This document shows positions 21,030 to 43,859 of a stretch of 64,000 nt of DNA, in pieces. A model generated the notes under the pieces. The model was not told the origin of the DNA and did no database searches. It was given only the letters and a program-made list of their open reading frames with translations. The DNA lies in assembly GCA_030280995.1 (NCBI GenBank), contig JASXTE010000008.1:10746212-10810211 (forward strand). Reading direction: 5' to 3'. Position 1 is the stretch's first letter; each line of letters opens with the position of its first letter. This stretch comes from Hemileia vastatrix (taxonomy: Eukaryota > Basidiomycota > Pucciniomycetes > Pucciniales > Zaghouaniaceae). Made by a program: the position numbers and the translations under genes.

Positions 21030-22110
21030 GACTCATATCTGGATAACTGTGAACTTATATAACTCTTCATCTTGTCATTTTTTATTATCAGTTTACAAGT
21101 TTTTGTAAAATTTTGAGAATCACACTCCAAATTAGGGTTAGGATTCTTTGAATCAAATGTCAATTTAAAGAAGACTCTACTGAAGGCTATCTTTTATTTC
21201 CCAACAACAGATTTGAATTTGGTTCAGTGGTTGCTGATATATTGACCTTTAAAGTTGAGCCTTTTTTCCCAATTTGACTTTTTTTCATTCATTTCTTATA
21301 TAAAAAAATAGTGTTAGGTATATTTTAATAACATTTCCTTTAACTGATGATTCTCCTGAATCCTACATTCTATTTCTCACAAACAGGTTTGAATCAGGTT
21401 CAGTGGTTTCTGAGATTTCGTTCTTTGAAGTTGAGCCTTTTTTTCTGTGTCTCACTTATCTTATTTCACATTTTTATATTGCATGATTAGAGGAGAATAA
21501 GGATTTTGAAACTATTATCTGATGATTATCTAGGCTTTTATCCCCCTCTATTTGGAATTTTCATCATAACTTTTCAAGTTTTTGTGAAATTTTGAAAAGT
21601 AGAGTCAGAATTAGGGTTAGCTTTATTTGAATCAACTTTCCTTTTAGCTGAAGATACTTCTGAAGTCTCTCTCTCATTTCCAGCATACCAATTTGAATTT
21701 GGTTCAGGTGTTTCTGAGAACTTGACCTTTAGAGTTGAGCCTTATTTTCAAAATTTCACATTTATTTATTTCATAATGCATATCATAACTTTTGCATCAT
21801 GCATTTATCCTTCCAGATTCTTATGATTATCTAGGCTTTAATCTCCCTCTTGTTGGAATTTTCATCATCAGCTCTCAAGTTTCTGTGAAATTTTGAAAAT
21901 TAAATTAGAGTCAGTATTAGGGTTATGTTTATTTGAATCTACTGTCCTTTTGGCCAAAGATACTTCTGAAGCCTATCTTTCATTTTCAGAAAACCAATTA
22001 GAATTTGGTTCAGTGGTTTTTGAGATATAAACCTTTTAAGTTGAGCCTTTTTTTCCCAATTTCACATAAATTTATCTCATAATGCACAAAATAACATTTA
22101 CATCATTCAT
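21030..22110 (+). repeat. Diverged tandem repeat, about 300-bp unit
   Basis: The landmark TTGAGCCTTTTTT recurs at about 21256, 21433, 21737 and 22040, and GGTTCAGTGG (or a variant) precedes it each time. The spacings are about 177, 304 and 303 bases. The same repeat appears in reverse orientation at 42330-42970 and, decayed, at about 50445-50560, in the equivalent part of related elements. Confidence 0.75.
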
Positions 22111-22726
22111 TCATCCTTCCAGACTCCTCAAACTACCTTTTTCTTTACTTATTACTATGCCCTTACATCAAGATGTGTTTTTTTCCTTTTCTTACCATTT
22201 TCATATGTCTAAACCTTCACTCATTTTTTCTTCTCTTAGAAGATCAGTCAAAAGTTAGTCCAACAAATCAACAAGGTAAGAAAAGAAGGTAAAATTAATT
22301 AATTTACCACACTTTATGTAGATAAATTTTTTTTGGCGATTTTTAAAACCATCAAATATATTTTATTCTTTCATAAAATTTTAATAAATAAATCTGATAT
22401 TTCAATTTACTAAAATAAAGTAATGATCTCACAACCTTGTGTTGTATAAAAGGTTATCATGATAAAATTCAATTGTTTTATGGGGTTCATCTTGCCTATA
22501 CCTGTGGAAAGTCCCAAACTTGGTTTGTAGAATTGGTCCCCATTTTGGCTTGAGGAATTTCCATTTCTTTAAAACTAGTGAATTTGACTTATCTTACTTA
22601 TTTATTTATTAATTTATGGAATTATTCTTCATTTTGGTAATTTTAACCCCTTACTTCTATAAAATGCAGAAAGGATATTTCCAAATTTTGTAATCTGACA
22701 TAGAAAATTGATGACATAGAAAAATT

Positions 22727-28984: not shown

Positions 28985-29145
28985 TTAAAAAAATTTCTTA
29001 ACAATACCCTCCCCTGCTCTTTACCATAACAGGGGGTGGGGATCACCATTTTTTTTTCTAAGGCAGAAAAAAAGTTATCACAAAAAAATGGCAATATCTT
29101 CCCCTGTGTTTTATTGAAGTAGGTGCCTGGGTTGCCAAAATTTAT
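28985..29145. repeat. Paired foldback hairpins, inverted copy of 22650-22780
   Basis: The first hairpin pairs ACCCTCCCCTGC with ACAGGGGGTGGGG. The second has CTTCCCCTGTGTTTTATTGA against AGGTGCCTGGGTTGCC and is the reverse complement of 22727-22780. Two related hairpins at similar spacing occur in both Harbinger-like elements. Confidence 0.6.
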
Positions 29146-29557
29146 GTTCTTTGCATAAATTAGCATGTAAACAAATCTCATAAGATAATTTAAAAACCTA
29201 AATTAATGACAATTCAAGTAAAAATGTGAGTGAAAATTGTTTGTGACCATAGTCAATGAAATCAAACACAAATGTATACATGAACCTCATGAGAAAAAAA
29301 ATATCCTCATGATTACTGTTATACAACACATGCCCAATGGCTCATTAAATTAGGTAAGTAGAGTATCATATATTACTTGTAAATTGTTAATTTGTGAAAT
29401 AAAAATAAAATTTGACAACCTATATTACACCCCATACTTTTTCTTTCTATTTAATGTTTTTTGTTTTACCTCAACTTTTTCCCATACCTTATAGATCCTA
29501 TTGACCAGCTCCCTATTGATTTGAAAAGAACAGCCAAAGTGAGTAAATTATTCACAG

Positions 29558-30703
29558 TATGGTAAGGTAAACTCTTACAGTCGCCTTGCTGTAAGCAGAA
29601 TCCGGAGGAGATATGTGGATTTAGCTGAAAACCCCATCCTTCCAATAAAAATAACAAAGTAGGTGTTCTAAATCACTAAGCTAACCAATCTACTTAGATC
29701 TGATTGATAAAATAATGAAACTCTAAAATAATTAACGCTTATTGAGATTTAAAGAAAGTGGCTGTTGATAAAAGAAATACTGATGACAACAATTAAGGTG
29801 TACCAGTGAAAGATCTGAAAAGATTGACTTTTATGTTTTTATAATATTTTTAATTTTTATGAGACAGCAATAATCAAGTCCCAGTGATGAAGACCTTTCT
29901 AAAGATACCCTGTATGATGTGTGATTTAAATTGTTGAGTAGTATTTCTAAAATGTTATATATAAAATATAAAGTTATAAGGGTATTACAAATTTATTTAA
30001 TTTGTTGAGTAATAAAAAATGAGACCGTGGTAGTTAATGATTAAGCTGTATGATGTGTCCCCCTCCCAATTTCGAGTTTGAGAGTCGCTTAAGTATTCCT
30101 AGTCACGTGCCTAAGTTTTCCCCTCCAGAGCTCTTCCAGAGTCAATCCGGAGCCCGTACGGAGTCCGTATGGAGCCGGAACGGAGTCAAAGCGGAGTCCG
30201 TACGGAGTCGAAACGGAGTCCGTCCGGACTTCCGGACTCAATTTAGAACCTTAAAACCTTAATAAAAAATCTAGAAAAATTACACATAATAGAGCTACTT
30301 CCCCTTTACATACCAAACTAATTTTCGTAGTCTGCGCAGCTCTAATTACCCCGTGAAAATTCATCAAAGTTAAGTAGTTTTTAAAAACGTAAATATTTCT
30401 ATAAAACTTTAAAATTCATTTAAAAATATAAAATAAATAGTAAAAATTCTGGGAAAATTTCCCAAGGTTCTTGAGTAACTCGACTTGATAATTATAAATT
30501 TTCAGACCGTAAAAATAAGTTTTCTCCGTAAAATAAATTGTTTTTGTGTAGGCATTCGCTCGTGACCAATTTCTTCATATTTAAAACTCAAATAATTAAA
30601 TAAAACCCTTTTTTAAAAAAAAAAAAATAATAACGCCAATCTTGCACGCCGTAATAACTCCATTTACATATTTAGGTGCCGTACTAAACTTTAGGCTACC
30701 ACA
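29558..30703 (-). repeat. 3' LTR of element A
   Basis: 1146 bp. It matches the 5' LTR at about 99%, apart from one extra 11-bp unit in the CGGAGTC array, a longer poly-A and a 1-bp indel. Confidence 0.95.
30148..30235. repeat. 11-bp tandem array, eight units, in 3' LTR
   Basis: Units are CGGAGCCCGTA, CGGAGTCCGTA, TGGAGCCGGAA, CGGAGTCAAAG, CGGAGTCCGTA, CGGAGTCGAAA, CGGAGTCCGTC and CGGACTTCCGG, in strict 11-base register. It is a CpG-rich island in AT-rich DNA. On the minus strand it precedes a TATATA stretch by roughly 190 bases, so it may be an upstream activating array. Confidence 0.9.
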
Positions 30704-30713
30704 TCCTCCCTCC
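30704..30713 (-). promoter_or_regulatory. Polypurine tract of element A
   Basis: On the minus strand GGAGGGAGGA directly precedes the 3' LTR start TGTGGTAGCC. Confidence 0.85.
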
Positions 30714-31364
30714 AATCGAGAATGTCCCCATTCTTAAAACTTTGCATAAGTGGTTGAGCAATTCCAAAAGAATTATCTTTTCTAATAAAATAATTTGATA
30801 AATTTGTTTTAGCTGGTCTTCTTTTAAATCTTTATAATAAAAATGTTCTTTCTTCTTCTCTGGCTTGATATAACATAAAATAAAATAATATAAATCTTGT
30901 GATGATTCCACTACGAGAGCAAGGTTTGAATCCCTTCAGACTCCCATATACCGGTCTTCCTTCTTGTCACAGCATTGAGAGAGTGGATCTTCCTATGAGA
31001 CGAATACTCCTGATTCCAACCTCATAGGGCCCCCCACTGAGCCGAATTCTATGATTCCAATCTCGCCATAAGGTCCTCCAAGCTTCACACCAAAAAAAAA
31101 TGGCCTAACTATGAGGCACTAAAAAAAATCATTCCCTAAAATCCAACTACCATCCTAACTTCTGATTCCTTCATCACAATTTTCGAACTTTGCTATACAG
31201 CAAACCCATAAAATACTTTTGCCAGGCTTCCAATAATAATTTTAACTTTAGACCATGTTAAAGCGCCACAAATTTCACCTAATTAACCATTATGCTTACT
31301 TTAGCATCATCACCACCTAAAGTTTTAACCTCCTAAAGCTTTCAGCACCCAATTCCAGAAATAA

Positions 31365-32530
31365 TTGAATAACCAGTTTAGAGTCTTAGTGGACAGTGAT
31401 AAATTAAAAGATTGAATTGAGTTATCCAAACAAGATTGACATTCCAGTTTAAAGTCTTGGTGGACCAAACATATAATCGATTGCCAGTTTATGGTCTTGG
31501 TGGACCAAAGATCGTTTAAGTGCATAAATATCTTGATATATTCCTAAGTAAGGCCTAGGCTTGACCAAAGATTGAATAAATTTGATAATCCAGTTTAATG
31601 TCATAGTGGACCAAACATTTGATCGACAAGTAATCCAGTATAAGGCCATAGTGGTCCAATGAATGTTGAATTATCCTGCAGATATTAATTTTCCAGTTTA
31701 AAGTCATAGTGGACTAAACAATGAATGAACTACCAGTTTAAAGTCATGGTGGACCAAACATTTAATCGATAAGAAATCCAGTTTTAGGTCATGGTGGACC
31801 CAACAGCTTGATAACAGTCCAGTTTAAGGTCTTGGTGGACCCAAAATTTGATTTATATAAAAAAAAAAATCCGTCTCCAAAAATATCCATAAATCTTGAA
31901 CATCCTTGAAATTCAGTTTAAAGTCTTGAAGGACTAACAGCTCCAATATAAAATCTTTAATGAAAGTCTTGAAAATTAGCCAGTTTAAAGTCTTGGAGGA
32001 CTAACAGCTCCAAAATTCGTATAAAAAAGACCTTAAAGAATGTTTTGAACAGTAGCCAGTTTAAAGTCTTGGAGGACTAACAGATCCAAAATACGTGTAA
32101 AAAACCTTAAAGAATGTCTTGAACAGTAGCCAGTTTAAAGTCTTGGAGGACTAAGAGCTCCAAAATACGAGTAAAAAAAAATCTTAAAGAACGTCTTGAA
32201 CAGTAGCCAGTTTAAAGTCTTGGAGGACTAACAGATCCAAAATACGTGTAAAAAAAACCTTAAAGAACGTCTTGAACAGTAGCCAGTTTGAAGTCTTGGA
32301 GGACTAACAGATCCAAAATTTGTATAAAACCCTTAAGGAAAGTCTTGAACAGTAGCCAGTTTAAAGTCTTGGAGGACTAAAAGATCCAAAATACGTAAAA
32401 AAAAACCTTAAAGAACGTCTTGAACAGTAGCCAGTTTAAAGTCTTGGAGGACTAACAGCTCCAAAATTCGTATAAAACCTTAAGGAAAGTCTTGAACAGT
32501 AGCCAGTTTAAAGTCTTGGAGGACTAACAG
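31365..32530. repeat. Hairpin-module array, AGTC/GACT and GGTC/GACC types
   Basis: At least 18 copies of a module lie in the 3' noncoding region of element A. On the plus strand each reads CAGTTTA, two bases, a stem, a 6-nt loop, then the complementary stem. Examples are AAGTCTTGGAGGACT, GGTCTTGGTGGACC and GTCATAGTGGAC. From 31978 to 32530 eight copies lie in a regular tandem repeat of about 75 bp (starts near 31978, 32053, 32128, 32204, 32281, 32353, 32429 and 32501). Left of that they are irregularly spaced, 40-110 bases apart, with unrelated sequence between. A single further copy is at 33258. No open reading frame covers the array. Confidence 0.9.
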
Positions 32531-32639
32531 CTGTCTTGAAGTAAAATCCCATTGGTATTGAGTTCCCCTAGACCCTGTTTCCTGTCTAAACTATATGAAT
32601 AAACTAAAAAGAATGATGACTGAAAAAAAAATAAAACTA

Positions 32640-32800
32640 AGAAATATAATAATTTTGATTTAATTAATTTTTTTTTTATTTTATTATTTTATTTTTATTT
32701 TTATTTTTATTTTTATTATTATTATTATTATTATTATTTTTTTTTTAATTTTAATTTTAATTTTTTAATTTTTTAATTTTTTTTTTTTTTTTTTTTTTAA
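32640..32800. repeat. Low-complexity T/A tract
   Basis: Runs of TTTTA, TTA and poly-T, then A-rich DNA to about 32930, inside the 3' noncoding region of element A. Confidence 0.9.
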
Positions 32801-33604
32801 ATTTAAAATAAAAGATTTTAGAAAAGATAGTTTTTAAATAAAAGTTAAAATTTAATTTTAAAGAAAGATAAATGAATGTGAAAAGAAAGATAAAAAAAGT
32901 ACTAAAAAAAATTTAAAATAAAATTTTAAAAGATGCCCCCCGGCCATTTGATGAGCCGTACCCTCGACATCATACCCACATCCAAGTGCAACTTGATGTG
33001 GTTACACAATTTTAAGAAATTGAAAAGAAAAGAAAATAAATGAAAGTTTTTAAAAGATAATTTTATAATGATGATCACTGGGTGGGCTCCCTCCAATTTA
33101 TAAAAATGATTAGAGACCACCAGTGAGCATCACCTTTACAATAATTCATAATATATATTAAAGAAAAGAAATCACAATCTAACATAAAAAATCAAAACAA
33201 AATAAAATAAAAAGAATCTTGAATCCGGCGTTGAGAGCGGTGTCTCTTGATTCGTTCCAGTTTATAGTCTTAGTGGACTTCCTATAATTAAAAGACAAAG
33301 CCAGGATTCAACTAGAAACAAGGAAAATTTTGGAAACGAACATTATGGGGTAATTGTGTATAGAGCAGCCAGCCCATCAATTACCCCCACACTTGCCAAT
33401 ATTAAATTAAGAAGGTTCCCCTGTGAACACTTCTTCCAATAAATTTTTAAAATTTTCCAACACTATCTTCACCCATATTTTTAGAAATTTTAAGTTTTTT
33501 TGAAAATTTCAAAGAAGGTTTTCACGCATTTCGTTATGTTTCATCACAGTTTCGTTGACCATATACAGTGTAACGATAGTAAAGTATTTTGATAAAAAAA
33601 AAGA

Positions 33605-33882
33605 AGATAGTTTATCCTCATTGCGGAGGTTGATAAGATTATTTTTTTTTTATTTTTTAAAAAATGTCATAGTTTATCCTCATTGCGGAGGTATCCATAA
33701 AATTTCGTAGATATCATAGTTTATCCTCATTGCGGAGGTATAAATTTAATAAAAGTCATTCAAATTGTAGTTTATCCTCATTTCGGAGTTGATAAAATTT
33801 AAGAAATTTCATAGTTTATCCTCATTGCGGAGGAATCCATAAAGTTTCATTGATATCATAGTTTATCCTCATTGCGGAGGAA
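33605..33882. repeat. Hairpin-module array, CCTC/GAGG type
   Basis: Six copies of AGTTTATCCTCATTGCGGAG or close variants, starting near 33608, 33669, 33717, 33767, 33811 and 33858, at spacings of 44-61 bases. The stem is CCTC with GAGG and the loop is ATTGCG. The last copy overlaps the integrase C-terminus, where it encodes LRNEDKL and the stop. Confidence 0.9.
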
Positions 33883-35547
33883 GACTTCGGCACTCCTGGT
33901 GCCTCTAGGATAGAACCGTTTCACTTGATCGGCCGCTACCCTCTTCTTCAATACTACTCCATCCAACTCTTCTAGCACATATGAACCGCCTGAAACTTGC
34001 TCCTTGATTTTATATGGTCCATTCCACCTATCTGCAAACATTTTTCCCCACTGACTTTCCAAACTCCTATTATACACCAGGACCATATCTCCTGGGCTCA
34101 AAGGTTTCCTTAATCGATGTGCCAACCGCTCATCCCAATATCTAACTGATTGATTTCGGATCTTCATCATCCGCGAATATGCCTTTTCTAAATATTCTTC
34201 TTTCTTTTCTAGCTGCATCATTCTTGCACACAATAATTCTTCAGTAGTTTTGACCGTGTCCCAGTCAACTCCAAGATATGATTCAGCTTCTAAATCAACC
34301 GGTAAAACTGCTTTCTGTCCAAAAACAAGTTCATATGGTGAAAATCCGGTCGTCCTTTTGGCAGTGATTCGATCAGCAAATAAAACTAAAGGTAAATAGT
34401 GCCTCCATTTTTCGGCACTTGTCCCACACATTTTAACTAAAGCATCCTTGATAACTTGATGCCCTCTTTCAACCATGCCTTCAGCTTCAGGATAATATGG
34501 GGTTGCTACCCTAACCTTTGATCCAACTTTCAATACGGCCTCTTTAAACTCTGTCCCAAATTCAGGACCTCCATCTACCGTTACCAACTTCATCACCCCA
34601 TACCTATATACCCAATTATTCAAAAAAAATTCTGCCACATTTTTGGCAGTTAAATTAATAAGAGGCGCTGCCTCTACCCAACCAGATAAATCATCTCTGG
34701 CCACAATTAAATATTTATACCGTCCCTCTTTTATATGAACAGCATCTAAACTAACTCTTCCAAAGAGCGTATATTCACCGGTCGCGCGTCCAGGTTCTTT
34801 TGGCCTTAAATAACTTCGTCTTTGACATTCTTCGCATGACTGAACCCACTGTTTAACAGCCATCTTCATGCCAGGCCACCAAAATCGATCAGAAATTCTT
34901 CTAAATGTTTCTCCAACGCCTCTATGCCCGAGATCTTCATGCAGTGATTTCAAAACTAATTCTTGCCCCTTCTGTTGAGTTATAACTACTTGAGGATTTG
35001 GATACCTCCTCCTCATTAAACGTTGACCAGATAGGTAAAACGTAGATGACTTCCTCTTGATAGCCACCCATTCATCGTCTTCACAATCTTCTGGCCTCTC
35101 TAAAGTCAACAAATATTTGACTAACAAAAAATAAAAACCAGTCTGACCCCAGACTTCATCTTGAAAATCGATTAATATAACATCAATAGGGACTTCTCTA
35201 TCACCAATATCACCTGCACATGAATGAGCCAATAATCGTTGACCCCTAAATAAATTTTTAATCGAGCTATGTCGACGTTTTTCTTCTGAACCTTTGGATC
35301 CTTCGAAAACCGTATTCAAAAATACCTCTTTCTCTTTATCCACCTTTTTATTTAAATTCTCTAATTCTCCAACATATACACCATTCCTTAATTTACTACT
35401 ATCCCACACTACCAATCCATTTTCCTCTACATACACCACATCTTCTTCTACCTCCTCTCTGCCGAATTTATCTACACCTTTTCCAACACCTTTATTAACA
35501 TAAAAACTATTTTCCAGTTTATCCTCTTGGTGGAGGTCATCAACACC
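33856..35547 (-). CDS. pol: Element A integrase (pol C-terminal block)
   Basis: The enzyme that inserts element DNA into the chromosome. The frame is open from the stop at 35548 to 33856, and the first ATG is at 35439 (527 residues from there). Counting from that Met: HHCC zinc domain H167, H172, C202, C205 (HEDLGH...CEEC); catalytic D232 (SLDAVH), D289 (TVDGGPEF) and E324 (GMVERG), a D,D-35-E arrangement; GPY/F-type module RWNGPYKI at about 474. There is no chromodomain. The protein ends RSAEVFLRNEDKL, encoded by a hairpin module. The upstream extension encodes another module product, LHQEDKL. It is in the same frame as the RT block, so it is probably part of one polyprotein needing suppression of the TAA at 35548-35550. 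Confidence 0.9.
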   Translation of the reverse strand, partial: GVDDLHQEDKLENSFYVNKGVGKGVDKFGREEVEEDVVYVEENGLVVWDSSKLRNGVYVGELENLNKKVDKEKEVFLNTVFEGSKGSEEKRRHSSIKNLFRGQRLLAHSCAGDIGDREVPIDVILIDFQDEVWGQTGFYFLLVKYLLTLERPEDCEDDEWVAIKRKSSTFYLSGQRLMRRRYPNPQVVITQQKGQELVLKSLHEDLGHRGVGETFRRISDRFWWPGMKMAVKQWVQSCEECQRRSYLRPKEPGRATGEYTLFGRVSLDAVHIKEGRYKYLIVARDDLSGWVEAAPLINLTAKNVAEFFLNNWVYRYGVMKLVTVDGGPEFGTEFKEAVLKVGSKVRVATPYYPEAEGMVERGHQVIKDALVKMCGTSAEKWRHYLPLVLFADRITAKRTTGFSPYELVFGQKAVLPVDLEAESYLGVDWDTVKTTEELLCARMMQLEKKEEYLEKAYSRMMKIRNQSVRYWDERLAHRLRKPLSPGDMVLVYNRSLESQWGKMFADRWNGPYKIKEQVSGGSYVLEELDGVVLKKRVAADQVKRFYPRGTRSAEVFLRNEDKL

Positions 35548-35592
35548 TTAATCTAAACACATTAGTCCTGCCAGTTTAACCTCATGGGGGAG
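35515..35592. repeat. Two hairpin modules within pol
   Basis: At about 35515 the plus strand reads CCAGTTTATCCTCTTGGTGG (then AGG). At about 35570 it reads CAGTTTAACCTCATGGGGGA (then GG). They flank the stop between the RNase H and integrase blocks. Confidence 0.85.
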
Positions 35593-37305
35593 GTATGGAA
35601 AGTCTTCAGCTCCTTTAGTGCTGGCTTTGATAATAGGTATATCTTCATCAAACTCTTCTGAGTCTGAATCTTCTTCAGTGGGTGGTCTCCTTGATAAACC
35701 ATCTGGCATAGTAAAAGTTTTGCCAGGCTTATGAACTAATTCAAACGAAAAATGTTGAATAAAAGCTACCCATCTCGTCATGGGTGCGTTCGGTAAACTT
35801 GGGGAATTAATCATCTGGATTAACGATTTCGCATCGACTTGCAACTCGAAATGTTGCCCCCACAAAATATGCTGAAGTTTCTTCAGTATTTTCGCCACAC
35901 CACATAATTCCAATTTTGGTTGAGAATATCTTGATTCGACCTCAGTAAATACTACAGATTCATACCTAACTGGCCTGATGTAACCAGCTTTATCCATCTG
36001 AGACAAAACCGCCCCAGCTGCAATCTGACTTGAATCAACTGCTAAATAAATTCTGCCAGCATCTTTTCCATAATCCAACTTGTGCAGGACTAAATCCTTC
36101 CCCACAACCTCCTTCAACTTCACAAACACCTTCTCACACTCTTCATCCCACTCCCAGTCTGCATCCTTTCTCATTAACCGTCTCAATGGAGCTGCCAATG
36201 AAGAAAAGTCCTTGATAAACATTCTAACATATACGCAAACGCCTAAAAACCCTCTGACTTCAGTCGTGTTCTTGGGTCTTGGCCAGGACTGAATTTTGTT
36301 AACTTTCTTCTTGGACATAATCCTACCCTCTCTACATACCACATGGCCTAATATTTCTAAGGCTGGCACACAACAGGAAAATTTTGAACCTGAAATATTT
36401 AAACCAGCCTCTTCAATTCGAAACAAGATTCTTTCTAAAGTAATTGCAAACTCCCAAATGAATTTGCGTATTCCGGGATTCTCTTCCAACACCTGGTTAT
36501 CATAGTCGGTTGTTGGTCCCTTAATTCCTCCATCATCTATAAAGATTCCAGCATATTGTGGAATTTCATCTTGAAGGATCCAAGCCATCTGAGCTTGATA
36601 AACTGCAACCGAATTTGTTGCTCCTTGAGGTAATCTTGTTAACTGTAAACGTCCAAGTGGCGTATCGAATGTAGTGAGAGGCCTTGAGTCCGGATGTAAC
36701 TCTCTCTCATCATATCCACCCATAATATCTCCTAAACCATAACACACTCTCCCTGCAAACGCTTCAACAAACTCCTCAGCACTAGGAGGTATCCCAGCAT
36801 CCTTTATTGTAACCCTATTTAATTCCCTAAGATCATGAACAACTCTAAGCTTGCCATTCGGTTTCTTGATACAAAATACCGGACTAGAATAACTTGATGT
36901 TGATTGCTCATACAGTCCAGTGCGTATCCGTTCTCTGACAACTTCGATATAAGCTTCTTTCAATGCAGCTGGAATAGGAATCGGTTTCTGCTGCCACGGT
37001 TCATGACATACCACAGGAATCTTGTAAGGCTCCCCATAGGAATTCTTCAACACACTCCTCTCCTCTTCTACAAAAGCAATGGCCTTCTCTCGCTTGACCA
37101 TCACATCCAACAACAACTTCTTCTCTTCTCCAGCCAACCAACCATCAGGTCCAAAATTAACAACACCCAGTCTCTCAAAAGTGATTCTTGACGTCTCAGA
37201 AAATTCAGGCGGATTCTTTACCAAGGGACTTTCATAAGGATCTCTTGATAACCTTGGTCTTCTCAAGGGTGGATTTAATTCAGCAGGTAGCGGTTCGTTA
37301 ATAGG
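35548..37305 (-). CDS. pol: Element A reverse transcriptase-RNase H block
   Basis: Copies element RNA into DNA. The frame is open from the TGA at 37306-37308, and the first ATG is at 37266 (572 residues). Counting from there: RT landmarks QSTSSYSSPVFCIKKPNGKL and VVHDLRELNRVTIK, catalytic Asp in CYGLGD (about 180), LPQGATNS (about 213-220) and the active-site box FIDD (242-245) in place of the usual YxDD; LEILGHVV (about 303). RNase H residues are D in LAVDSS (411), E in KLELCG (453), D in QVDAK (478) and D in MPDGLS (522). The end, YLPHEVKLAGL, is encoded by a hairpin module. All key residues are present, so the block looks recently functional. Confidence 0.92.
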   Translation of the reverse strand, partial: PINEPLPAELNPPLRRPRLSRDPYESPLVKNPPEFSETSRITFERLGVVNFGPDGWLAGEEKKLLLDVMVKREKAIAFVEEERSVLKNSYGEPYKIPVVCHEPWQQKPIPIPAALKEAYIEVVRERIRTGLYEQSTSSYSSPVFCIKKPNGKLRVVHDLRELNRVTIKDAGIPPSAEEFVEAFAGRVCYGLGDIMGGYDERELHPDSRPLTTFDTPLGRLQLTRLPQGATNSVAVYQAQMAWILQDEIPQYAGIFIDDGGIKGPTTDYDNQVLEENPGIRKFIWEFAITLERILFRIEEAGLNISGSKFSCCVPALEILGHVVCREGRIMSKKKVNKIQSWPRPKNTTEVRGFLGVCVYVRMFIKDFSSLAAPLRRLMRKDADWEWDEECEKVFVKLKEVVGKDLVLHKLDYGKDAGRIYLAVDSSQIAAGAVLSQMDKAGYIRPVRYESVVFTEVESRYSQPKLELCGVAKILKKLQHILWGQHFELQVDAKSLIQMINSPSLPNAPMTRWVAFIQHFSFELVHKPGKTFTMPDGLSRRPPTEEDSDSEEFDEDIPIIKASTKGAEDFPYLPHEVKLAGLMCLD

Positions 37306-38115
37306 TCAAACTTTATTTGCTACTTTCTTATATTTGGCTGCGTCTACATCTAAATAAACTTGAGGTAAAACATCGCCATTAAAACTTTCATCAAATGAAT
37401 CTTCTTCATCGTCAGAATCAGAATAAGAAAAATTAGAAAAATATTTTATTTCATTTTTAAATTTTACCCTTTTCTCCTTTCCCTCGTCTAATTTATAAAC
37501 AGATTTTCCAACACCTTTTCTTCCCTTATCCAACAGTAAATCACCCGTAAAGAAAGTTGGCAGTTTAACCTCTTGCTGGAGAACCGGAATTGAATTTTCA
37601 CAAAAATTATTTTTTTGGGTTTTAATTATACTGAGATTTTTTATCGGATTTTGATGTGATTTTTGCAGTTTACCCTCTTGCTGGAGGCCCATAATAGAAG
37701 GAGATAATTGCAGTTTAACCTCTTGCTGGAGGCCCGGAAACGAATTTTCACAAAAATTATTTTTTTGTGTTTTAATTATACTAAGATTTTTAATCGGGTT
37801 TTGATAAGATATTTGCAGTTTACCCTCTTGCTGGAGGTCCATAAACATACCCTTCCAATTTTTATCCAACCTAATTTGGCCCATTTTGCCCTTTTCACCG
37901 TTTTTAAATTTAATAGAAAAACCGGGTAAATCCAATAAACATATAGAAAAGTCCAAAACGTATTTGCACTCCAAAGTAATATTAACAGAAAATAATTGAG
38001 AATCCACTTGAATTATCTCCAAGTGAGCTGACCTATTGCAATCCGGGATCTCATCCTGAGGAGAGATTACAACATTAGAGCGATCAGCCCCTCCTACCCC
38101 AAAAAATGAGGGCAT
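37306..38115 (-). CDS. pol: Element A protease-RT linker with duplicated hairpin modules
   Basis: This block follows gag-protease in the -1 frame, overlapping it by 22 bases, and is in frame with the RT block except for TGA at 37306-37308. It has no enzymatic motif I recognise. Its middle contains a direct duplication of about 45 residues (NPIKNLSIIKTQKNNFCENS occurs twice), bounded by module-encoded peptides LQQEGKL and LQQEVKL (four copies). An acidic tail follows (FSYSDSDDEEDSFDES). The ATG at 38115 lies upstream of the slip site and may be fortuitous. Entry by frameshifting from gag is more likely. Confidence 0.75.
   Translation of the reverse strand: MPSFFGVGGADRSNVVISPQDEIPDCNRSAHLEIIQVDSQLFSVNITLECKYVLDFSICLLDLPGFSIKFKNGEKGKMGQIRLDKNWKGMFMDLQQEGKLQISYQNPIKNLSIIKTQKNNFCENSFPGLQQEVKLQLSPSIMGLQQEGKLQKSHQNPIKNLSIIKTQKNNFCENSIPVLQQEVKLPTFFTGDLLLDKGRKGVGKSVYKLDEGKEKRVKFKNEIKYFSNFSYSDSDDEEDSFDESFNGDVLPQVYLDVDAAKYKKVANKV
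37559..37840. repeat. Four hairpin modules in the pol linker
   Basis: Copies of CAGTTTA(A/C)CCTCTTGCTGGA near 37560, 37666, 37709 and 37815, with loop TTGCTG and stem CCTC/GAGG. The first lacks a full right arm (GAGAACC). The intervening roughly 100-bp segments are duplicates of each other. Confidence 0.9.
38094..38110 (-). other. Candidate -1 ribosomal frameshift site, gag-pol of element A
   Basis: On the minus strand the gag frame reads CAT TTT TTG GGG TAG. T TTT TTG (38106-38100) fits the X XXY YYZ slippery heptamer and is followed two codons later by the gag stop. After a -1 slip the reading becomes TTT TTT GGG GTA GGA, the linker frame. A downstream stimulatory structure is not obvious by eye. 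Confidence 0.6.
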
Positions 38116-40703
38116 TCATCCCTTTCCAACAAACATAATTCACCAGAAGCCGTCCGTTTTATATGCCGCTTCTTGGTGCAAACACAACACTGGCACAGAG
38201 TAGTAATCCCTGGCCGTGTTTCCCAACCTTCATCTCCAGGAGGCGCTAACCGCATATGTAACCTCCGCATATCTTCACCAGTGATCTCCAAACTAATCCC
38301 CATGCCAGCTTGATACCCTATCCTGGCCTCAAAATCCATCAAAAAAGGACCACCAAGAACAGTTTTGACTGCTCCTCTGGCCACATAAAAGTGAACCTTA
38401 CCAACAGATCCACCAATGCCTAACCTGACATGCTCAGCAGTACCCATCAGCTCTGTTGCATGCCCTCCAATACCTCTGAGGTTTCCCCCAGTTCCACTTT
38501 TAATTGGCAAGCCTATACTCGTCGCTTGCTCCAATGAAATTAAATTAATTTGAGACCCTGAATCGACCAAGGCCTTTACTTCTTTACCGTTAAGAGTTAC
38601 CACCAGGTAACCCAGGGGAGCGGAAAAATGCGTATCTACATCTTCCCCAAACTTTTCAGCATTTTCACAAATATATTCCACCTCTCCAGTGGAAACCCGA
38701 CGCCTCGTCAAATGCTTCTTTTGTTTTTCAGCAAGCGCCGGACTAATCGTAAATAAATCCCCCAAAGATAAGGGAATCTGCAGTTGATTCACCCTATTCA
38801 AAACTGCGTCCATCGCATTAGCTTGACCAGAGACTACTGGCCGCTCATACTGGACCTTTGATTTAACAACCTTGGCCCTGGGTACCTCTTGAGGTCCAAC
38901 TGAGCCATCTTCACCCCCCATTATAACATCTTCACTTTCTATAACCCTAACTCCGTCACCAGCTTCTTGCACTAATCCTGATCCATCGCTAGTCCTTCTT
39001 ACACCCTCCATTGGGATGGGACCGCTAAAACTTGGTCTGGGTAGAGACGCCAACGGTACGTCCTCCTCAGAATCCGAATCATCCTCTGGCATAGGCTCAC
39101 CATTTAAATCAAACTTGCCATAACTAGGGGGCCCCATATCAGCAATCCCCTTCTGCATTTTATATAATTCGTCCTTAGAGTAAGGGTTCAATTTGTTGAC
39201 GGCAGTTTGAGCACTAGAATTCTTGTCCTTAGAGTAAGGGTTCACTTTGTTATTGGCCTTGCCAGGATTAGCCCTCAATTGGCTCTGAATGCTACTTTTC
39301 GCCTTAGTAGCGGCTGCTCTTCTAGCAGCATTAACATCGTATTCGCCAGCCATACAGCTACCCTCCACCTGGGCAACCGTCGCCAGCTCTAAACCACCAA
39401 AAGAAGTAGAAAATGTGGCTTTACTGACCTCTTTCTCCTTGCCCTTGTCAGCTTTACCACCATTACCATTACCATTTTTTCCACTCTTGGCATTAACATC
39501 TTCATCCGTCACCTCTTCAAATCTGGCTCTCCTTTCAGCCGTTAAACTTCTTCTGAGCAAATCAGAAGGAGACTGTCCATCACTGGGCTTGATGAACAAA
39601 CCATCAGGAAATTTATAAACTTTACCATCAAATAAAACTCGCCCAGCATCCATATCCTTATCAAGAGCAAAACAAACTGTTGCTCTGTGCCCTCTCCTAT
39701 TACAATAGGAGCACACCTTTGGCTCATCATAGCCACCTCTATAATTACTACCACCATTCCCACCATTTCTCCCATTGCCTGGGAAGCGGTTACCGTTGTT
39801 ATTGCCATTATAATTTCGACGTTCATAACCTCTAGACTGATAAGAAGTCGACGTCGACGAAGAAGCGATTGGGGCCTTATTGGCCTTCTGGGTTTCTTGA
39901 ACAAATATTTTTAATTGTTTAGTTATATCGGCCAGGTGATCGACCATCTTATTATCCACATTACCCTCAACTTTAGCAGCAGGTAATCCCATTTGAGCCT
40001 TCTTGGCCTCCTGGGCTTTGACCATAATATCGTTATTTTCGGCCAAAACTTCGCTAACCTTGCTGACATATTGAGTGCATGACTCTTGATATTTGTCCAA
40101 CGCCAATAACTTTAGATGGGCTTGAATGTTGTCCTTGATAACCTCCAGAGCCGGCAGTTTCTGCTCACCATTAGGCAGTTCCTTCATCAAATCTTTTCTT
40201 GAAAGATCCTTCAAGACGTCCATACGAATATCCCTGCTGCATGCTGACCAAAACAAATCTTTTGCTTGGTTCTCATGCACTAACTCGTCCACCAGTATGA
40301 GATATTCCACCACTTCATCAAACTGAACACAGAGCTTTTTGAAGTCAGCCATAGAAGAAACACCACCTTTTGCTTGCCAGTCTCCAACAATTTTATTGAG
40401 GTCCATCATAGTAAACCTAACACCCCATCTATCAACCATAGCTTTAGAAAGCTTAACCCAATCCTTGTCCTTGAATGCCTGCATAGCAATAACCTCTTTT
40501 TCCACCTCCCTATCGGCAATAAAAAATCTAACTTGCTTCACCATATCCACATGAGAAGCACCATCAACAGCAGCAGCAGCTTCATACCTGCTAATGAACC
40601 ATTTAACCTCCTCCCCATCAAACTTTGGGCCATCCCAAGAAACAATTCTAACTGAGGGAGTAAGAGGGTTAGAAGATCCAGAAGCAACAGCAGAAGAAGA
40701 CAT
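38094..40703 (-). CDS. gag: Element A Gag-protease polyprotein, 869 aa
   Basis: Structural capsid/nucleocapsid protein fused to an aspartic protease. The start ATG at 40703 (MSSSAVASGSSNPLTP) is the first after the primer site and follows a leader of about 150 bases. Residues 20-270 form the capsid-like helical region. A Gly/Asn-rich linker leads to a CCHC knuckle CSYCNRRGHRATVC (331-344). A charged, acidic spacer contains a duplicated NPYSKD and PMPEDDSDSEED. The protease has the active site ALVDSGSQINLIS (DSG at about 714-716) and a VLGGPF flap-distal motif (about 782). The frame is uninterrupted, supporting recent activity. The same arrangement, decayed, is at 4370-6494. Confidence 0.92.
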   Translation of the reverse strand: MSSSAVASGSSNPLTPSVRIVSWDGPKFDGEEVKWFISRYEAAAAVDGASHVDMVKQVRFFIADREVEKEVIAMQAFKDKDWVKLSKAMVDRWGVRFTMMDLNKIVGDWQAKGGVSSMADFKKLCVQFDEVVEYLILVDELVHENQAKDLFWSACSRDIRMDVLKDLSRKDLMKELPNGEQKLPALEVIKDNIQAHLKLLALDKYQESCTQYVSKVSEVLAENNDIMVKAQEAKKAQMGLPAAKVEGNVDNKMVDHLADITKQLKIFVQETQKANKAPIASSSTSTSYQSRGYERRNYNGNNNGNRFPGNGRNGGNGGSNYRGGYDEPKVCSYCNRRGHRATVCFALDKDMDAGRVLFDGKVYKFPDGLFIKPSDGQSPSDLLRRSLTAERRARFEEVTDEDVNAKSGKNGNGNGGKADKGKEKEVSKATFSTSFGGLELATVAQVEGSCMAGEYDVNAARRAAATKAKSSIQSQLRANPGKANNKVNPYSKDKNSSAQTAVNKLNPYSKDELYKMQKGIADMGPPSYGKFDLNGEPMPEDDSDSEEDVPLASLPRPSFSGPIPMEGVRRTSDGSGLVQEAGDGVRVIESEDVIMGGEDGSVGPQEVPRAKVVKSKVQYERPVVSGQANAMDAVLNRVNQLQIPLSLGDLFTISPALAEKQKKHLTRRRVSTGEVEYICENAEKFGEDVDTHFSAPLGYLVVTLNGKEVKALVDSGSQINLISLEQATSIGLPIKSGTGGNLRGIGGHATELMGTAEHVRLGIGGSVGKVHFYVARGAVKTVLGGPFLMDFEARIGYQAGMGISLEITGEDMRRLHMRLAPPGDEGWETRPGITTLCQCCVCTKKRHIKRTASGELCLLERDECPHFLG

Positions 40704-40744
40704 CCCAATAAGTAATGAAAAGCGTTAACAATCGATAAAATAAC

Positions 40745-40811
40745 AAGCCTCTTGCAGGCCAATAACAAAAATCCAATTAGAGTTCCAGAAAATATGCCTC
40801 TTGCAGGCTAA
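40745..40811. repeat. Two small hairpin repeats in the element A leader
   Basis: GCCTCTTGCAGGC with following (C/T)AATAAC occurs at about 40747 and 40795, 48 bases apart. The stem is GCCT/AGGC and the loop CTTGC. The loop resembles the TTGC part of the pol modules. Confidence 0.7.
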
Positions 40812-40855
40812 TAACGTTCTTGATCCAAGTAAGTCTTTAAAGAAAGCTAGAGAAA

Positions 40856-40877
40856 TCGAACCCCACGTTGGGCGCCA
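40856..40877 (-). promoter_or_regulatory. Primer-binding site for tRNA-Lys(CUU), element A
   Basis: The plus strand reads TCGAACCCCACGTTGGGCGC then CA, which is the 3' end of a eukaryotic tRNA-Lys(CUU) (T arm, acceptor strand, CCA). It lies two bases inside the 5' LTR (LTR starts 40880). The tRNA identity is from memory of the conserved tRNA sequence. Confidence 0.85.
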
Positions 40878-40879
40878 AC

Positions 40880-42009
40880 TATGGTAAGGTAAACTCTTAC
40901 AGTCGCCTTGCTGTAAGCAGAATCCGGAGGAGATATGTGGATTTAGCTGAAAACCCTGTCCTTCCAATAAAAATAACAAAGTAGGTGTTCTAAATCACTA
41001 AGCTAACCAATCTACTTAGATCTGATTGATAAAATAATGAAACTCTAAAATAATTAACGCTTATTGAGATTTAAAGAAAGTGGCTGTTGATAAAAGAAAT
41101 ACTGATGACAACAATTAAGGTGTACCAGTGAAAGATCTGAAAAGATTGACTTTTATGTTTTTATAATATTTTTAATTTTTATGAGACAGCAATAATCAAG
41201 TCCCAGTGATGAAGACCTTTCTAAAGATACCCTGTATGATGTGTGATTTAAATTGTTGAGTAGTATTTCTAAAATGTTATATATAAAATATAAAGTTATA
41301 AGGGTATTACAAATTTATTTAATTTGTTGAGTAATAAAAAATGAGACCGTGGTAGTTAATGATTAAGCTGTATGATGTGTCCCCCTCCCAATTTCGAGTT
41401 TGAGAGTCGCTTAAGTATTCCTAGTCACGTGCCTAAGTTTTCCCCTCCAGAGCTCTTCCAGAGTCAATCCGGAGCCCGTACGGAGTCCGTACGGAGCCGG
41501 AACGGAGTCAAAGCGGAGTCGAAACGGAGTCCGTCCGGACTTCCGGACTCAATTTAGAACCTTAAAACCTTAATAAAAAATCTAGAAAAATTACACATAA
41601 TAGAGCTACTTCCCCTTTACATACCAAACTAATTTTCGTAGTCTGCGCAGCTCTAATTACCCCGTGAAAATTCATCAAATTAAGTAGTTTTTGAAAACGT
41701 AAATATTTCTATAAAACTTTAAAATTCATTTAAAAATATAAAATAAATAGTAAAAATTCTGGGAAAATTTCCCAAGGTTCTTGAGTAACTCGACTTGATA
41801 CTTATAAATTTTCAGACCGTAAAAATAAGTTTTCTCCGTAAAATAAATTGTTTTTGTGTAGGCATTCGCTCGTGACCAATTTCTTCATATTTAAAACTCA
41901 AATAATTAAATAAAACCCTTTTTAAAAAAAAAATAATAACGCCAATCTTGCACGCCGTAATAACTCCATTTACATATTTAGGTGCCGTACTAAACTTTAG
42001 GCTACCACA
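40880..42009 (-). repeat. 5' LTR of element A
   Basis: 1130 bp, from TGTGGTAGCC at 42009 to ...TTACCATA at 40880 on the minus strand. It contains the promoter for the element. The 11-bp array has seven units here. Confidence 0.95.
41470..41546. repeat. 11-bp tandem array, seven units, in 5' LTR
   Basis: Same register as 30148-30235 with one CGGAGTCCGTA unit fewer. The third unit is CGGAGCCGGAA here and TGGAGCCGGAA in the other LTR. Confidence 0.9.
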
Positions 42010-42329
42010 ACAGGATTTTTAAAGTTTTTTTATATTTGTTAAATTTACCTTCTTTTTATACCTTTTTTATTCTATGGATTAATTTTTGACTGATTTGAAA
42101 TAAACATCCAAAATGTGTGAACTCTTGATAAGATTCCAAGCCAGGTGGAGCTTTGGTTGTTTTGTGATGAACTTGAGAGACCTTTTTTAAGTAAAGAATA
42201 TATTCCTATGGAGATAAAAATAAGTTACATCATTTTAAGAATGAAACATATATTATCAGACACACCAAGAGAGTAGCCTTTAACAAATCCTGGTCTAAAC
42301 ATGTAATAAGTTAAATGAAATTTAGAAAA

Positions 42330-42970
42330 AAGGCTCCACTTTAAAGGTCCATATCTTACCAACCACTGAGGGGAATTCAAATCCATTTATGTCAAATGAA
42401 ATATAGGCTTCAGAAGAATCTTCAACTAAAAGAACATAAGATTCAAATAAACCTAACCCTAATTTTGACTCTGATTTTTAAAATTGCACAAAAATTTGAA
42501 ATTGATAATGAAAATTCCAAAGAGATGGAGATATAAGCCTAGATAATCATCAGATTAGAGTTTCAGAAGCCTTGTTATCTAATCATGTAATATTAAAAGA
42601 TAAAATAAATTAAGTAACATTTGGAAAAAAGGCTCCACTTTTAAGTTCAAAGTCTCAGCAATCACTGAACCAAATTCAAACCTGTTTTTAGGAGATGAAA
42701 GATAGGCTTCAGGAGAGTTTTCAGTTAAAGGACATGTGATTTAAATAAACCTAACTCTAATTTATTACATGAAAATATGAAATAAAAAAATTAAATTAGG
42801 AAAGAAAGGCTCAAATTTAAAGGTCAATATCTCAGCGACCCCAGAACCAAATTTAAATCTGTTAGTAGGAAATAAAAGGTAGTCTTCAGGAGAATCTTCA
42901 GTAAAAAGATCATTAGATTTGAATAAACCTAACTCTAATTCTGAGTCTGATTTTCAAAATTATACAAAAA
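42330..42970 (-). repeat. About 300-bp repeats of element N/L
   Basis: Reverse-orientation counterparts of 21030-22110. AAGGCTC(C/A)A(C/A)(T)TTA-type phrases occur near 42328, 42629 and 42806. Confidence 0.65.
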
Positions 42971-43859
42971 CTTAAAAAGTGGTAATGTAGATAAGAGCAA
43001 GAAGAGTTTATTAATTCCACTGTTTTCCAGACAAGAGTCATGCATATATTTAAGTATGAAAGCTTCATAGAAGGAAAGAGATATCATTTAGCTATAAAAA
43101 AAGGAGATAAAAATTACCTTGATTCAAAAGTAGGAAAAATAGAGAGAGAAAGAATGATGTTGGAATTTGGAGTAAATTGAATATGTAGTAAGTTAAATGC
43201 ATAAAGATTGTGCAATGTATGTGTTTTAATGACATGGAACCAAAAAAAAGTGAAATAGTGGAAAGGTGGGATGATGACCATTCCAAGAAGGAATGATGAG
43301 TAGGTTGATGGAGCTAAAAAAGAAAGAAAAGAGAGAGAGAAAAAAAGGTTAATTTTACAATAATAATCAAAAATAACCACTTACAAAAAAAATTAGATAC
43401 AAAAAAGAAAGAAAAAACAGAAAAAAAAACAAAAAAAATATAATTAGCAATCAAAAAATCATAAAAATTAATAAAAAGACTTGCCTGGAGAGATGAGATG
43501 AGAAAAATTAATGAAACCAAATCATTTGAGGGATTCTGGAAGAGAAGAGGAAATGGATATGAGGGATGAATGAAAAAAGGAACAGTGAAAAATTATGCAA
43601 TTGCAGAAAATATGCAATTTCATGTTGAGCTGGTGAATGTAAACAAATGAGACATCCAAAAAGAGACTTTCAGCATAAATTCAAAATAAAAATGAATATG
43701 AAAAATAAAAACACCAAACCAAGTGAATAAAGCACAAAAGTTGAACATTTGGAGAGTATTAAAAAAAAATAAAAGTGTTTTGTTTCAAAATGTTGGAGGG
43801 TGTTTGGCATAATTACAGAGTGTATGCTGGTGGAAAGAATGTTTTGTGATTCAAGGGAG

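What the first reader, a model, noticed from the sequence alone, without database searches (positions are those of the whole stretch)
31365..37840. A hairpin module repeated about 31 times across element A, with paired stem changes
The plus-strand form is CAGTTTA, two bases, stem, 6-nt loop, stem. Stems seen are AGTC/GACT, GGTC/GACC and CCTC/GAGG, so base pairs 1 and 2 of the stem change on both sides together while CAGTTTA and a loop of the type TTGGTG, ATAGTG, ATTGCG or TTGCTG stay. Such covariation is the usual sign that a fold is maintained or copied as a unit. Copies lie in noncoding DNA (31365-32530, 33258, 33605-33882) and inside pol (35515-35592, 37559-37840), and are absent from the A-like fragment at 4370-6494. 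They could act in RNA packaging or dimerisation, as strand-transfer points, or as small parasites of the element. I know of no description of this.
Basis: partly seen in the sequence, partly recalled or inferred. Interest (0 to 1): 0.85.

Follow-up and report, generated by a model that had tools for sequence, protein, structure and literature searches.

The report
Coremin-like RNA hairpins in fungal retrotransposon
A jumping gene in a fungus carries about thirty copies of a tiny RNA hairpin resembling one that plant viruses use to stop RNA-destroying enzymes, and the same hairpin turns up near the start of bacterial virus messages, which hints at a shared trick for keeping RNA alive.

Summary
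In detail: 31 copies of a 22-nt hairpin module, all in one orientation, inside a young LTR retrotransposon (29558-42009; LTRs 99.6% identical). In transcript sense the module reads NNUC-[6-nt loop]-GANN-N-UAAACU(A/G), like hairpin 1 plus spacer of the coremin Xrn1-resistant RNA of plant viruses. Five copies (33608-33880) fit the published hexaloop consensus exactly, with the experimentally resistant loop CGCAAU (0 hits in 150 shuffles). The same motif occurs in phage and bacterial contigs, often in 5' leaders: 80 of 137 have a ribosome site and ORF downstream in sense, 7 of 137 in antisense. A covariance model trained on 55 contig copies finds 30 of 31 modules and nothing else above noise. Loop position 4 and spacer position 7 change together in contigs (R/A versus Y/G; Fisher 1e-14); 31 of 31 modules obey. 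Against full membership: 25 of 31 loops break the published YGNNAD rule, and hairpin 2, required in print, was not found above chance. Best reading: an array of coremin-like roadblocks to 5'-3' RNA decay. The fold is well supported; the function is inferred.

The parts
29558..42009 (-). LTR retrotransposon carrying the modules (sense = minus strand), 4-bp target duplication CTGT
   Evidence: LTRs 40880-42009 and 29558-30703, 5 mismatches in 1130 aligned bases plus 16 gap columns, ends TGTGGTA/TACCATA, CTGT on both sides
40880..42009 (-). 5' LTR, followed by a likely primer-binding site TTGGCGCCCAACGTGGGG
   Evidence: the site is read by eye
38094..40724 (-). gag-protease ORF; no module inside
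   Evidence: ORF; aspartyl protease Pfam hits; no module
37306..38115 (-). linker ORF between protease and reverse transcriptase, holds four modules in one frame (peptide LQQE[VG]KL)
   Evidence: no relative at E 0.01 in the protein database
35548..37305 (-). reverse transcriptase / RNase H ORF; module 35572 near its end
   Evidence: RVT_1, RT_RNaseH, RT_RNaseH_2
33856..35547 (-). integrase ORF; module 35515 near its start, module 33859 at its end
   Evidence: Integrase_H2C2 above and rve just below the Pfam cut-off
37561..37837 (-). modules 37561, 37666, 37711, 37816: stem [CT]CTC/GAGG, loop CAGCAA, spacer N-TAAACTG
35515..35593 (-). modules 35515 (loop CACCAA) and 35572 (loop CCCCAT), stem CCTC/GAGG, spacer N-TAAACTG
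33608..33880 (-). modules 33608, 33670, 33717, 33768, 33812, 33859: stem CCTC/GAGG (ACTC at 33768), loop CGCAAT (CGAAAT at 33768), spacer A-TAAACTA; fit published coremin hexaloop YGNNAD
   Evidence: 5 full fits, a sixth (33768) with one pair open, 0 in 150 shuffles
33258..33279 (-). single module, stem AGTC/GACT, loop CACTAA, spacer A-TAAACTG
31914..32525 (-). nine modules (31914, 31981, 32057, 32131, 32208, 32284, 32357, 32432, 32504), tandem array of about 76 nt, stem AGTC/GACT, loop CTCCAA (CTTCAA at 31914), spacer TAAACTG (one base changed at 32284)
31374..31841 (-). nine modules (31374, 31445, 31485, 31591, 31636, 31694, 31734, 31779, 31820), 5' stem arm mostly GGTC, loops CACCA[AT] or CACTA[AT], spacer TAAACTG (one base changed at 31636 and 31779)
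   Evidence: 31636 is the one module missed by the contig-trained model
29558..30703 (-). 3' LTR, preceded by purine stretch GGAGGGAGGA

Best explanation
The modules are coremin-like RNA elements: a 4-bp hairpin with a 6-nt loop whose loop and 3' spacer (UAAACU+A/G) form a compact tertiary fold. They lie in sense in the retrotransposon RNA, all of them after the gag-protease ORF. The proposed work is mechanical: when the element RNA is decapped or cut, a 5'-3' exoribonuclease (Xrn1 in the fungus) entering from the 5' side is stopped at a module, so that downstream RNA (pol parts and 3' region) survives as protected fragments, and Xrn1 may be tied up. Thirty-one copies give redundancy. Shown here: copies, orientation, covariation, shared fold rules with a phage and bacterial family. 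Inferred: tertiary contact, Xrn1 stalling, protected fragments, benefit to the element.
For: Published coremin hexaloop consensus fits 5 copies exactly and no shuffle; loops CGCAAU and CGAAAU (33768) resisted Xrn1 in vitro in a plant-virus context (PMC10520033). Constant in all 31: closing C-G, loop C1, loop A5, loop end A or T, and the spacer C and U whose change abolished resistance in print. 31 of 31 are in transcript sense. A model trained on 55 contig copies ranks 30 of 31 modules first, E 2.8e-5 to 0.023; next hit E 6.3. Loop 4 x spacer 7: 77 of 84 A7 have R4, 20 of 21 G7 have Y4 in 105 flank-distinct contig copies with pair 1 formed; modules 31 of 31. Pair 1 in 116 contig copies: CG 26, UG 24, UA 23, AU 20; C-A, which would be G-U on the other strand, 2 against 7.2 expected, while U-G is 24 against 26.0 expected: an RNA fold on the sense strand. 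In a scan that forbade G at pair 2 and left its partner free, all 9 hits (at least four unrelated flanks) have C-G there, as in the fungal CCTC copies. Contig copies lie in 5' leaders: 80 of 137 sense against 7 of 137 antisense; in 4 of 22 loci scanned for tRNAs (L028, L058, L079, L104) they start at the base after a tRNA, in L109 one base later. Two named phages carry it: Lactobacillus phage LR2 and Synechococcus phage S-B43, 61 and 35 bases before an annotated CDS. A flaviviral xrRNA stops bacterial RNase J1 as well as Xrn1 (PMC5760640). Yeast Ty3 needs Xrn1 and processing bodies to transpose (PMC4589538).
Against: 25 of 31 loops lack the G at loop position 2 that YGNNAD asks for; loops CAGAAA, CAAGAA and CAAAGA failed in vitro, though with spacer A, not the G of these copies. 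Published work calls hairpin 2 absolutely required; after the modules 8 of 31 have a hairpin of -1 kcal/mol or better, against 37% at random element positions and 28% in shuffled flanks; in the contig set 29% against 34% shuffled, and 18% against 14% at -3. Seven modules lie in coding sequence, where a strong block could hinder translation. The 120 RT homologues listed show no run of module peptides. Pair 1 in contigs also shows A-G 6 and 12 other unpaired besides C-A and A-C. Contig patterns were derived from the fungal modules, so the fixed columns are not independent. No RNA data.
Confidence: 0.6

Rival explanations
1. The module is a binding site for a protein (Gag nucleocapsid or a host protein), used for packaging, dimerisation or localisation; the repeat array raises avidity.
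For: Many copies in the genomic RNA, most in the 3' noncoding part; 31 of 31 in sense.
Against: The same hairpin-spacer with the same covariation occurs in Lactobacillus, Streptococcus and cyanophage-type leaders, which share no Gag; the constant positions are those needed against Xrn1 in print.
Confidence: 0.13
2. The modules are leftovers of tandem duplication without function; the core resembles coremin by descent or chance.
For: Arrays with units of about 76, 47 and 150 nt; three unpaired and one broken pair; no hairpin 2 above chance.
Against: Between 17 flank-distinct copies the core holds 1.36 bits per column, flanks about 0.3; the stem changes on both sides; 31 of 31 obey a loop-spacer rule seen in contigs. 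LTRs are 99.6% identical, so the arrays came with a recently active element.
Confidence: 0.12
3. The modules act on translation: they slow or stop ribosomes, setting the ratio or folding of pol domains at the protease/RT, RT/integrase and integrase/end junctions.
For: Published coremin RNA stalls scanning ribosomes in vitro; the seven coding modules lie outside the matched Pfam stretches and share one frame.
Against: 24 of 31 modules are noncoding and lie after the last pol ORF; the assay in print was of scanning, not elongating, ribosomes.
Confidence: 0.1
4. A mobile DNA hairpin that inserts copies of itself, like the hairpin elements of some mitochondrial DNAs (recalled, no call).
For: Similar 22-nt cores in unrelated flanks.
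Against: All 31 in one orientation; U-G but hardly C-A at pair 1 in the contig set, which marks RNA, not DNA; conserved unpaired spacer.
Confidence: 0.03

Closest known systems
Coremin xrRNA (xrRNA_C) of benyviruses, cucumoviruses and other RNA viruses (PMC10520033, most of the text read; PMC5869530, passages)
   Same: 4-bp hairpin 1, C-G closing pair, 6-nt loop with C1, A5 and non-C end, spacer UAAACU; six copies with loops that were Xrn1-resistant in print; repeats, 3' UTR and coding positions also reported in viruses
   Different: Host is an LTR retrotransposon; 31 copies; 25 have loop CNNYA[AU] with spacer G; no hairpin 2 above chance
Phage / bacterial 5'-leader hairpin found here (no paper seen in the listings)
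   Same: Same core, pair 1 and pair 2 swaps, loop 4 - spacer 7 rule, no hairpin 2 above chance
   Different: Mostly single copies, in 5' leaders or after tRNAs; presumed enzyme RNase J, not Xrn1
Flaviviral xrRNAs (PMC5760640, passages)
   Same: Proposed mechanical block of 5'-3' exoribonucleases of different kinds
   Different: Larger ring-forming pseudoknot; no likeness in sequence that I know of (not compared here)
Tandem repeats in 3' untranslated regions of plant LTR retrotransposons (recalled, no call)
   Same: Tandem arrays between pol and 3' LTR
   Different: No conserved RNA hairpin is known to me for those arrays

Membership tests
Coremin xrRNA (xrRNA_C) | 4-bp hairpin 1 closed by C-G next to the loop | tested here: met
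   Closing pair C-G 31 of 31; pair 2 31 of 31; pair 3 30 of 31; pair 1 28 of 31 with G-U allowed
Coremin xrRNA (xrRNA_C) | Hexaloop YGNNAD, group 33608-33880 | tested here: met
   6 of 6: CGCAAT five times, CGAAAT once
Coremin xrRNA (xrRNA_C) | Hexaloop YGNNAD, all other copies | tested here: not met
   25 of 25 have A, T or C at loop position 2; they keep C1, A5 and A/T6
Coremin xrRNA (xrRNA_C) | Spacer with UAAACUA and essential C, U | tested here: inconclusive
   C and U constant in 31 of 31; last base A in 6, G in 25; UAAACU intact in 28
Coremin xrRNA (xrRNA_C) | Hairpin 2 directly after the spacer | tested here: not met
   8 of 31 at -1 kcal/mol or better against 37% of random element positions; a weak 2-bp hairpin, or one starting more than 4 bases on, would escape this test
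Coremin xrRNA (xrRNA_C) | Lies in sense in an RNA | tested here: met
   31 of 31 in the sense of gag-pol
Coremin xrRNA (xrRNA_C) | Stops Xrn1 | not testable with these tools
   Needs an enzyme assay
Phage-leader hairpin family found here | Loop 4 R with spacer A, loop 4 Y with spacer G | tested here: met
   31 of 31; contig set 97 of 105 flank-distinct
Phage-leader hairpin family found here | Scores with a model trained on the family alone | tested here: met
   30 of 31 above all other window hits; 31636 missed
Any Rfam family | Match above gathering score in 29000-43000 | tested here: not met
   Two hits at E up to 1, both below gathering score

The most novel reading that the evidence does not exclude
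A very small exonuclease roadblock (hairpin plus spacer, no second hairpin) is shared by plant and fungal RNA viruses, bacteriophages and an LTR retrotransposon. It comes in two interchangeable tertiary solutions (spacer A with loop G2/R4, spacer G with loop Y4), and the retrotransposon has multiplied it about 31-fold so that Xrn1 decay of its RNA yields a ladder of protected 3' RNAs, while phages use it against RNase J after tRNA processing and at the heads of strongly needed messages.
Probability: 0.4. Interest if true: 0.9.

Novelty: new variant of a known kind. Interest (0 to 1): 0.8.

Why it matters
In the papers seen here coremin-type exonuclease blocks are described from RNA viruses only. 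An LTR retrotransposon with 31 of them would be a genomic element using the viral trick, and it touches an open question: why Ty3-type elements depend on Xrn1 and processing bodies (PMC4589538, passages). The phage counterpart suggests that natural blocks to bacterial RNase J exist; the 2018 flavivirus paper took RNase J1 as an enzyme that xrRNAs never naturally meet. The loop-spacer covariation would be a new rule for the fold and predicts a second functional loop class outside YGNNAD.

Tried and rejected
Peptide repeat / polyprotein cleavage site: coding modules share the peptide LxxE[DVG]KL, but 24 of 31 copies are noncoding, with spacings that are often not multiples of three. A loose form of the peptide is found 48 times in 42 of the 120 RT homologues listed (of 317), against 22.9 in shuffles; most printed rows repeat a few conserved stretches shared by many homologues, and I saw no run of them in a linker. 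The linker ORF has no relatives at E 0.01.

DNA operator or promoter: disfavoured by U-G against C-A at pair 1.

Hairpin 2: searched, not found above chance. By eye I noted an upstream GTT/AAC extension of the stem in some copies; upstream bases are not shared among the 17 flank-distinct copies.

Loop 2 x spacer 7 as the covarying pair: weaker (Fisher 1.4e-5) than loop 4 x spacer 7 (1.1e-14). I looked at five loop positions before choosing loop 4, so that p-value was picked.

Other copies in rust genomes: the genome search did not complete; no relative of the element in viral contigs.

What the contig set is. It pools the viral-contig loci with the 27 genome contigs: 18 of 216 unique contexts are from genome contigs. 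Rows dropped: the loop 4 table uses copies with pair 1 formed (175 of 216 unique contexts, then 105 flank-distinct). Without that filter A7 has R4 in 159 of 168 and G7 has Y4 in 34 of 48. The model uses 55 of the 86 distinct rule-consistent cores listed (five of the earlier 60 and the 26 after L226 left out by hand), so it was trained on copies that obey the rule. The pair 1 figures use 116 rule-consistent of 135 flank-distinct copies; the leader count uses 137 of 164 rule-consistent copies, those with enough flank. Notebook slips: entry 1 says about 37 modules and 25 in the first array; the right numbers are 31 and 18. Entry 5 names phage S-SKS1; the hairpin was not found in the stretch fetched from it, but in S-B43.


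Full report
What is there. The window holds a 12.45-kb LTR retrotransposon on the minus strand, 29558-42009. Its LTRs (1130 and 1146 bp) differ at 5 of 1130 aligned bases, begin TGTGGTA, end TACCATA and are flanked by a 4-bp duplication CTGT; a likely primer-binding site TTGGCGCCCAACGTGGGG follows the 5' LTR and a purine stretch precedes the 3' LTR. The gag-protease ORF (38094-40724) is followed by a linker ORF (37306-38115), an RT/RNase H ORF (35548-37305) and an integrase ORF (33856-35547); the last three lie in one frame, parted by single stop codons. The best-scoring RT homologue is unnamed (73% identity); the best-scoring named ones are from rust fungi, Austropuccinia psidii 64% and Puccinia striiformis 62% (120 of 317 hits listed). 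That the element is of the Ty3 type follows from the order protease, RT, RNase H, integrase (recalled rule).

The modules. 31 copies of a 22-nt unit exist: 18 at 31374-32525, one at 33258, six at 33608-33880, two at 35515-35593, four at 37561-37837. Seven are coding, 24 are not. All 31 point the same way, and that way is the transcript. In sense the unit is NNUC - six-base loop - GANN - N - UAAACU(A or G).

Chance. The word CAGTTTA occurs 29 times in the window, both strands, expected 15.0 with sd 4.2, none of 100 shuffles reaching 29. With the full unit, 28 copies are found on the minus strand and none on the plus strand; 150 shuffles average 0.067. Tandem duplication explains neighbours (units of about 76, 47 and 150 nt). 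Seventeen copies have unrelated flanks; among these the core holds 1.36 bits per column, the flanks 0.35 and 0.29. Stem pair 1 is CG, AU, GC, GU or UG (3 of 17 unpaired), pair 2 is GC or CG, both sides changing together. In the counts the covariation score and the double changes exceed all 500 shuffles; the numbers of pairs with a double change and of pair types do not.

Recognition. Two scans of viral contigs with patterns taken from the modules gave many hits that shared bases the pattern had left free: TAGTTTA-NN-GTC-ATTGCG-GAC, in sense NGTC-CGCAAT-GACN-N-TAAACTA, the same free bases as modules 33608-33880. This is the hairpin 1 and spacer of the coremin Xrn1-resistant RNA. In print (PMC10520033; I read parts 1 to 4 of 6 of the text, the reference list, one discussion section and passages) the fold needs a 4-bp hairpin 1, a loop YGAD or YGNNAD, a spacer and a small hairpin 2; the hexaloops CGCAAU and CGAAAU resisted Xrn1, while CAGAAA, CAAGAA and CAAAGA did not; the RNA also stalls scanning ribosomes. 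Scanned with that published consensus, five modules fit in full and a sixth with one pair open, none in 150 shuffles. This test does not rest on the fungal pattern.

Rules shared with phages and bacteria. From the viral contigs, pooled with the 27 genome contigs, I took copies of the form NGTCCNNNANGACNNTAAACT[AG]. In 105 flank-distinct copies with pair 1 formed, spacer base 7 = A goes with a purine at loop 4 in 77 of 84, spacer G with a pyrimidine in 20 of 21 (Fisher 1.1e-14; loop 4 was chosen after looking at five positions). Without the pairing filter the figures are 159 of 168 and 34 of 48 unique contexts. The modules follow the rule in 31 of 31: A/A 6, C/G 20, U/G 5; within the element this is few independent events. 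The six natural virus hexaloops named also have a purine at loop 4, though CGAUAA and CGACAA worked in vitro, so the rule is not absolute. Where spacer 7 is G, loop 2 need not be G (13 of 21 are not, against 11 of 84 with spacer A). My reading, inferred: two alternative contacts hold the spacer, and most fungal copies use the second, which I did not see tested in print. Pair 1 in 116 rule-consistent contig copies is CG 26, UG 24, UA 23, AU 20; CA 2 (7.2 expected if the sides were independent), AC 1, AG 6 (15.0 expected), others fewer; UG is at its expectation (26.0). So U-G is allowed and C-A is hardly seen: an RNA fold on the sense strand. A scan that forbade G at pair 2 but left its partner free gave nine hits with at least four unrelated flanks, all with C-G there, the swap of the fungal CCTC/GAGG copies. 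A covariance model from 55 contig copies (one of them a genome contig) ranks 30 of 31 modules above everything else in the window, E 2.8e-5 to 0.023; the next hit has E 6.3; 31636 is missed. Caveat: the contig scans began from fungal patterns, so AGTTTA, the stem bases, loop C1 and A5 were imposed (pair 2 was freed), the model was trained on copies that obey the rule, and its E-values are rough.

Where the contig copies lie. Of 137 rule-consistent copies with enough flank, 80 have a ribosome-binding site and an ORF within 150 nt downstream in sense, 7 in antisense. 18 of 164 have a tRNA T-arm-like word just upstream. Of 22 loci that looked tRNA-linked and were scanned, four (L028, L058, L079, L104, with the same unusual tRNA call, so probably related) have the hairpin at the base after the tRNA and L109 one base later; in the others no tRNA was called or it lay further off. 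Downstream genes include a phage scaffold protein, a gp32-like protein and HSP70/DnaK; four of nine had no Pfam hit. Two named phages carry the hairpin, Lactobacillus phage LR2 (after a tRNA-like end) and Synechococcus phage S-B43, 61 and 35 bases before an annotated CDS; the stretches fetched from LR1 and S-SKS1 do not. By their titles 21 of the 27 genome contigs are Firmicutes, 4 candidate phyla, 2 Proteobacteria (phyla from recall). Most of these hosts are expected to carry RNase J (recalled). The picture fits an element that guards an RNA against attack from its 5' end; that is inference.

Against. 25 of 31 loops break YGNNAD. Hairpin 2, required in print, is not found above chance after the modules (8 of 31 at -1 kcal/mol against 37% of random element positions and 28% of shuffled flanks) nor in the contig set (29% against 34% shuffled). 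I therefore do not file the modules as full members of the coremin family: they share hairpin 1 and spacer and, I think, the way of working. Nothing here shows Xrn1 stalling, RNA fragments or a gain for the element.

Mechanism. Most likely, decapped or cut element RNA is eaten by Xrn1 up to a module and stops there, leaving protected 3' RNAs. Yeast Ty3 assembles in processing bodies and needs Xrn1 (PMC4589538, abstract and passages), and a rust fungus makes small RNAs over transposons (PMC8444563, abstract), so such attack is plausible. No module lies in the LTRs, the leader or the gag-protease ORF, as expected if they would hinder scanning ribosomes, but with about six clusters this is weak.

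Literature. Searches of the held library for Xrn1-resistant with retrotransposon (2 of 3 listed), xrRNA with transposable element (6 of 6) and a wider set (8 of 44) listed no paper on such elements in transposons; coremin itself gave only plant-virus and RNA-virus papers among unrelated words (40 of 140; 1 of 1); searches aimed at bacterial or phage counterparts listed none (11 of 11; 15 of 40; 1 of 2). I saw listings only; subscription journals are mostly missing and preprint servers not held, so print elsewhere cannot be excluded.

Limits. The host genome could not be searched, no related element DNA was found in viral contigs, and the RT homologues listed lack module peptide runs, so I cannot say how widespread the array is.

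Noticed in passing
contig loci, e.g. L019, L057, L068, L098, L119, L163, L200; named phages L309:325-346 (LR2), L310:620-641 (S-B43): A coremin-like hairpin plus spacer recurs in 5' leaders of phage and bacterial genes, 80 of 137 with a ribosome site and ORF downstream in sense against 7 of 137 antisense; possible RNase J roadblock.
   Followed up: partly
L028:12516-12537, L058:6603-6624, L079:1948-1969, L104:11170-11191, L109:4697-4718: The hairpin starts directly (one base later in L109) after the 3' end of a tRNA gene, where tRNA processing would expose a new 5' end.
   Followed up: partly
L138, L151, L157, L142: Streptococcus contigs (and L142, a candidate phylum) with the hairpin upstream of dnaK (protein starts; HSP70 Pfam hit tested for L157 only).
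   Followed up: partly
37306-37308 and 35548-35550: Two single stop codons part the linker, RT and integrase ORFs, which are in one frame, although the LTRs are 99.6% identical. Whether they are damage or are read through is not known.
   Followed up: no
30139-30228 and 41461-41539: Both LTRs hold an 11/22-nt tandem repeat around CGGAGTCCG with different copy number.
   Followed up: no
8375-9038 and 21518-22123: Tandem duplications of 171 and 306 nt outside the element.
   Followed up: no
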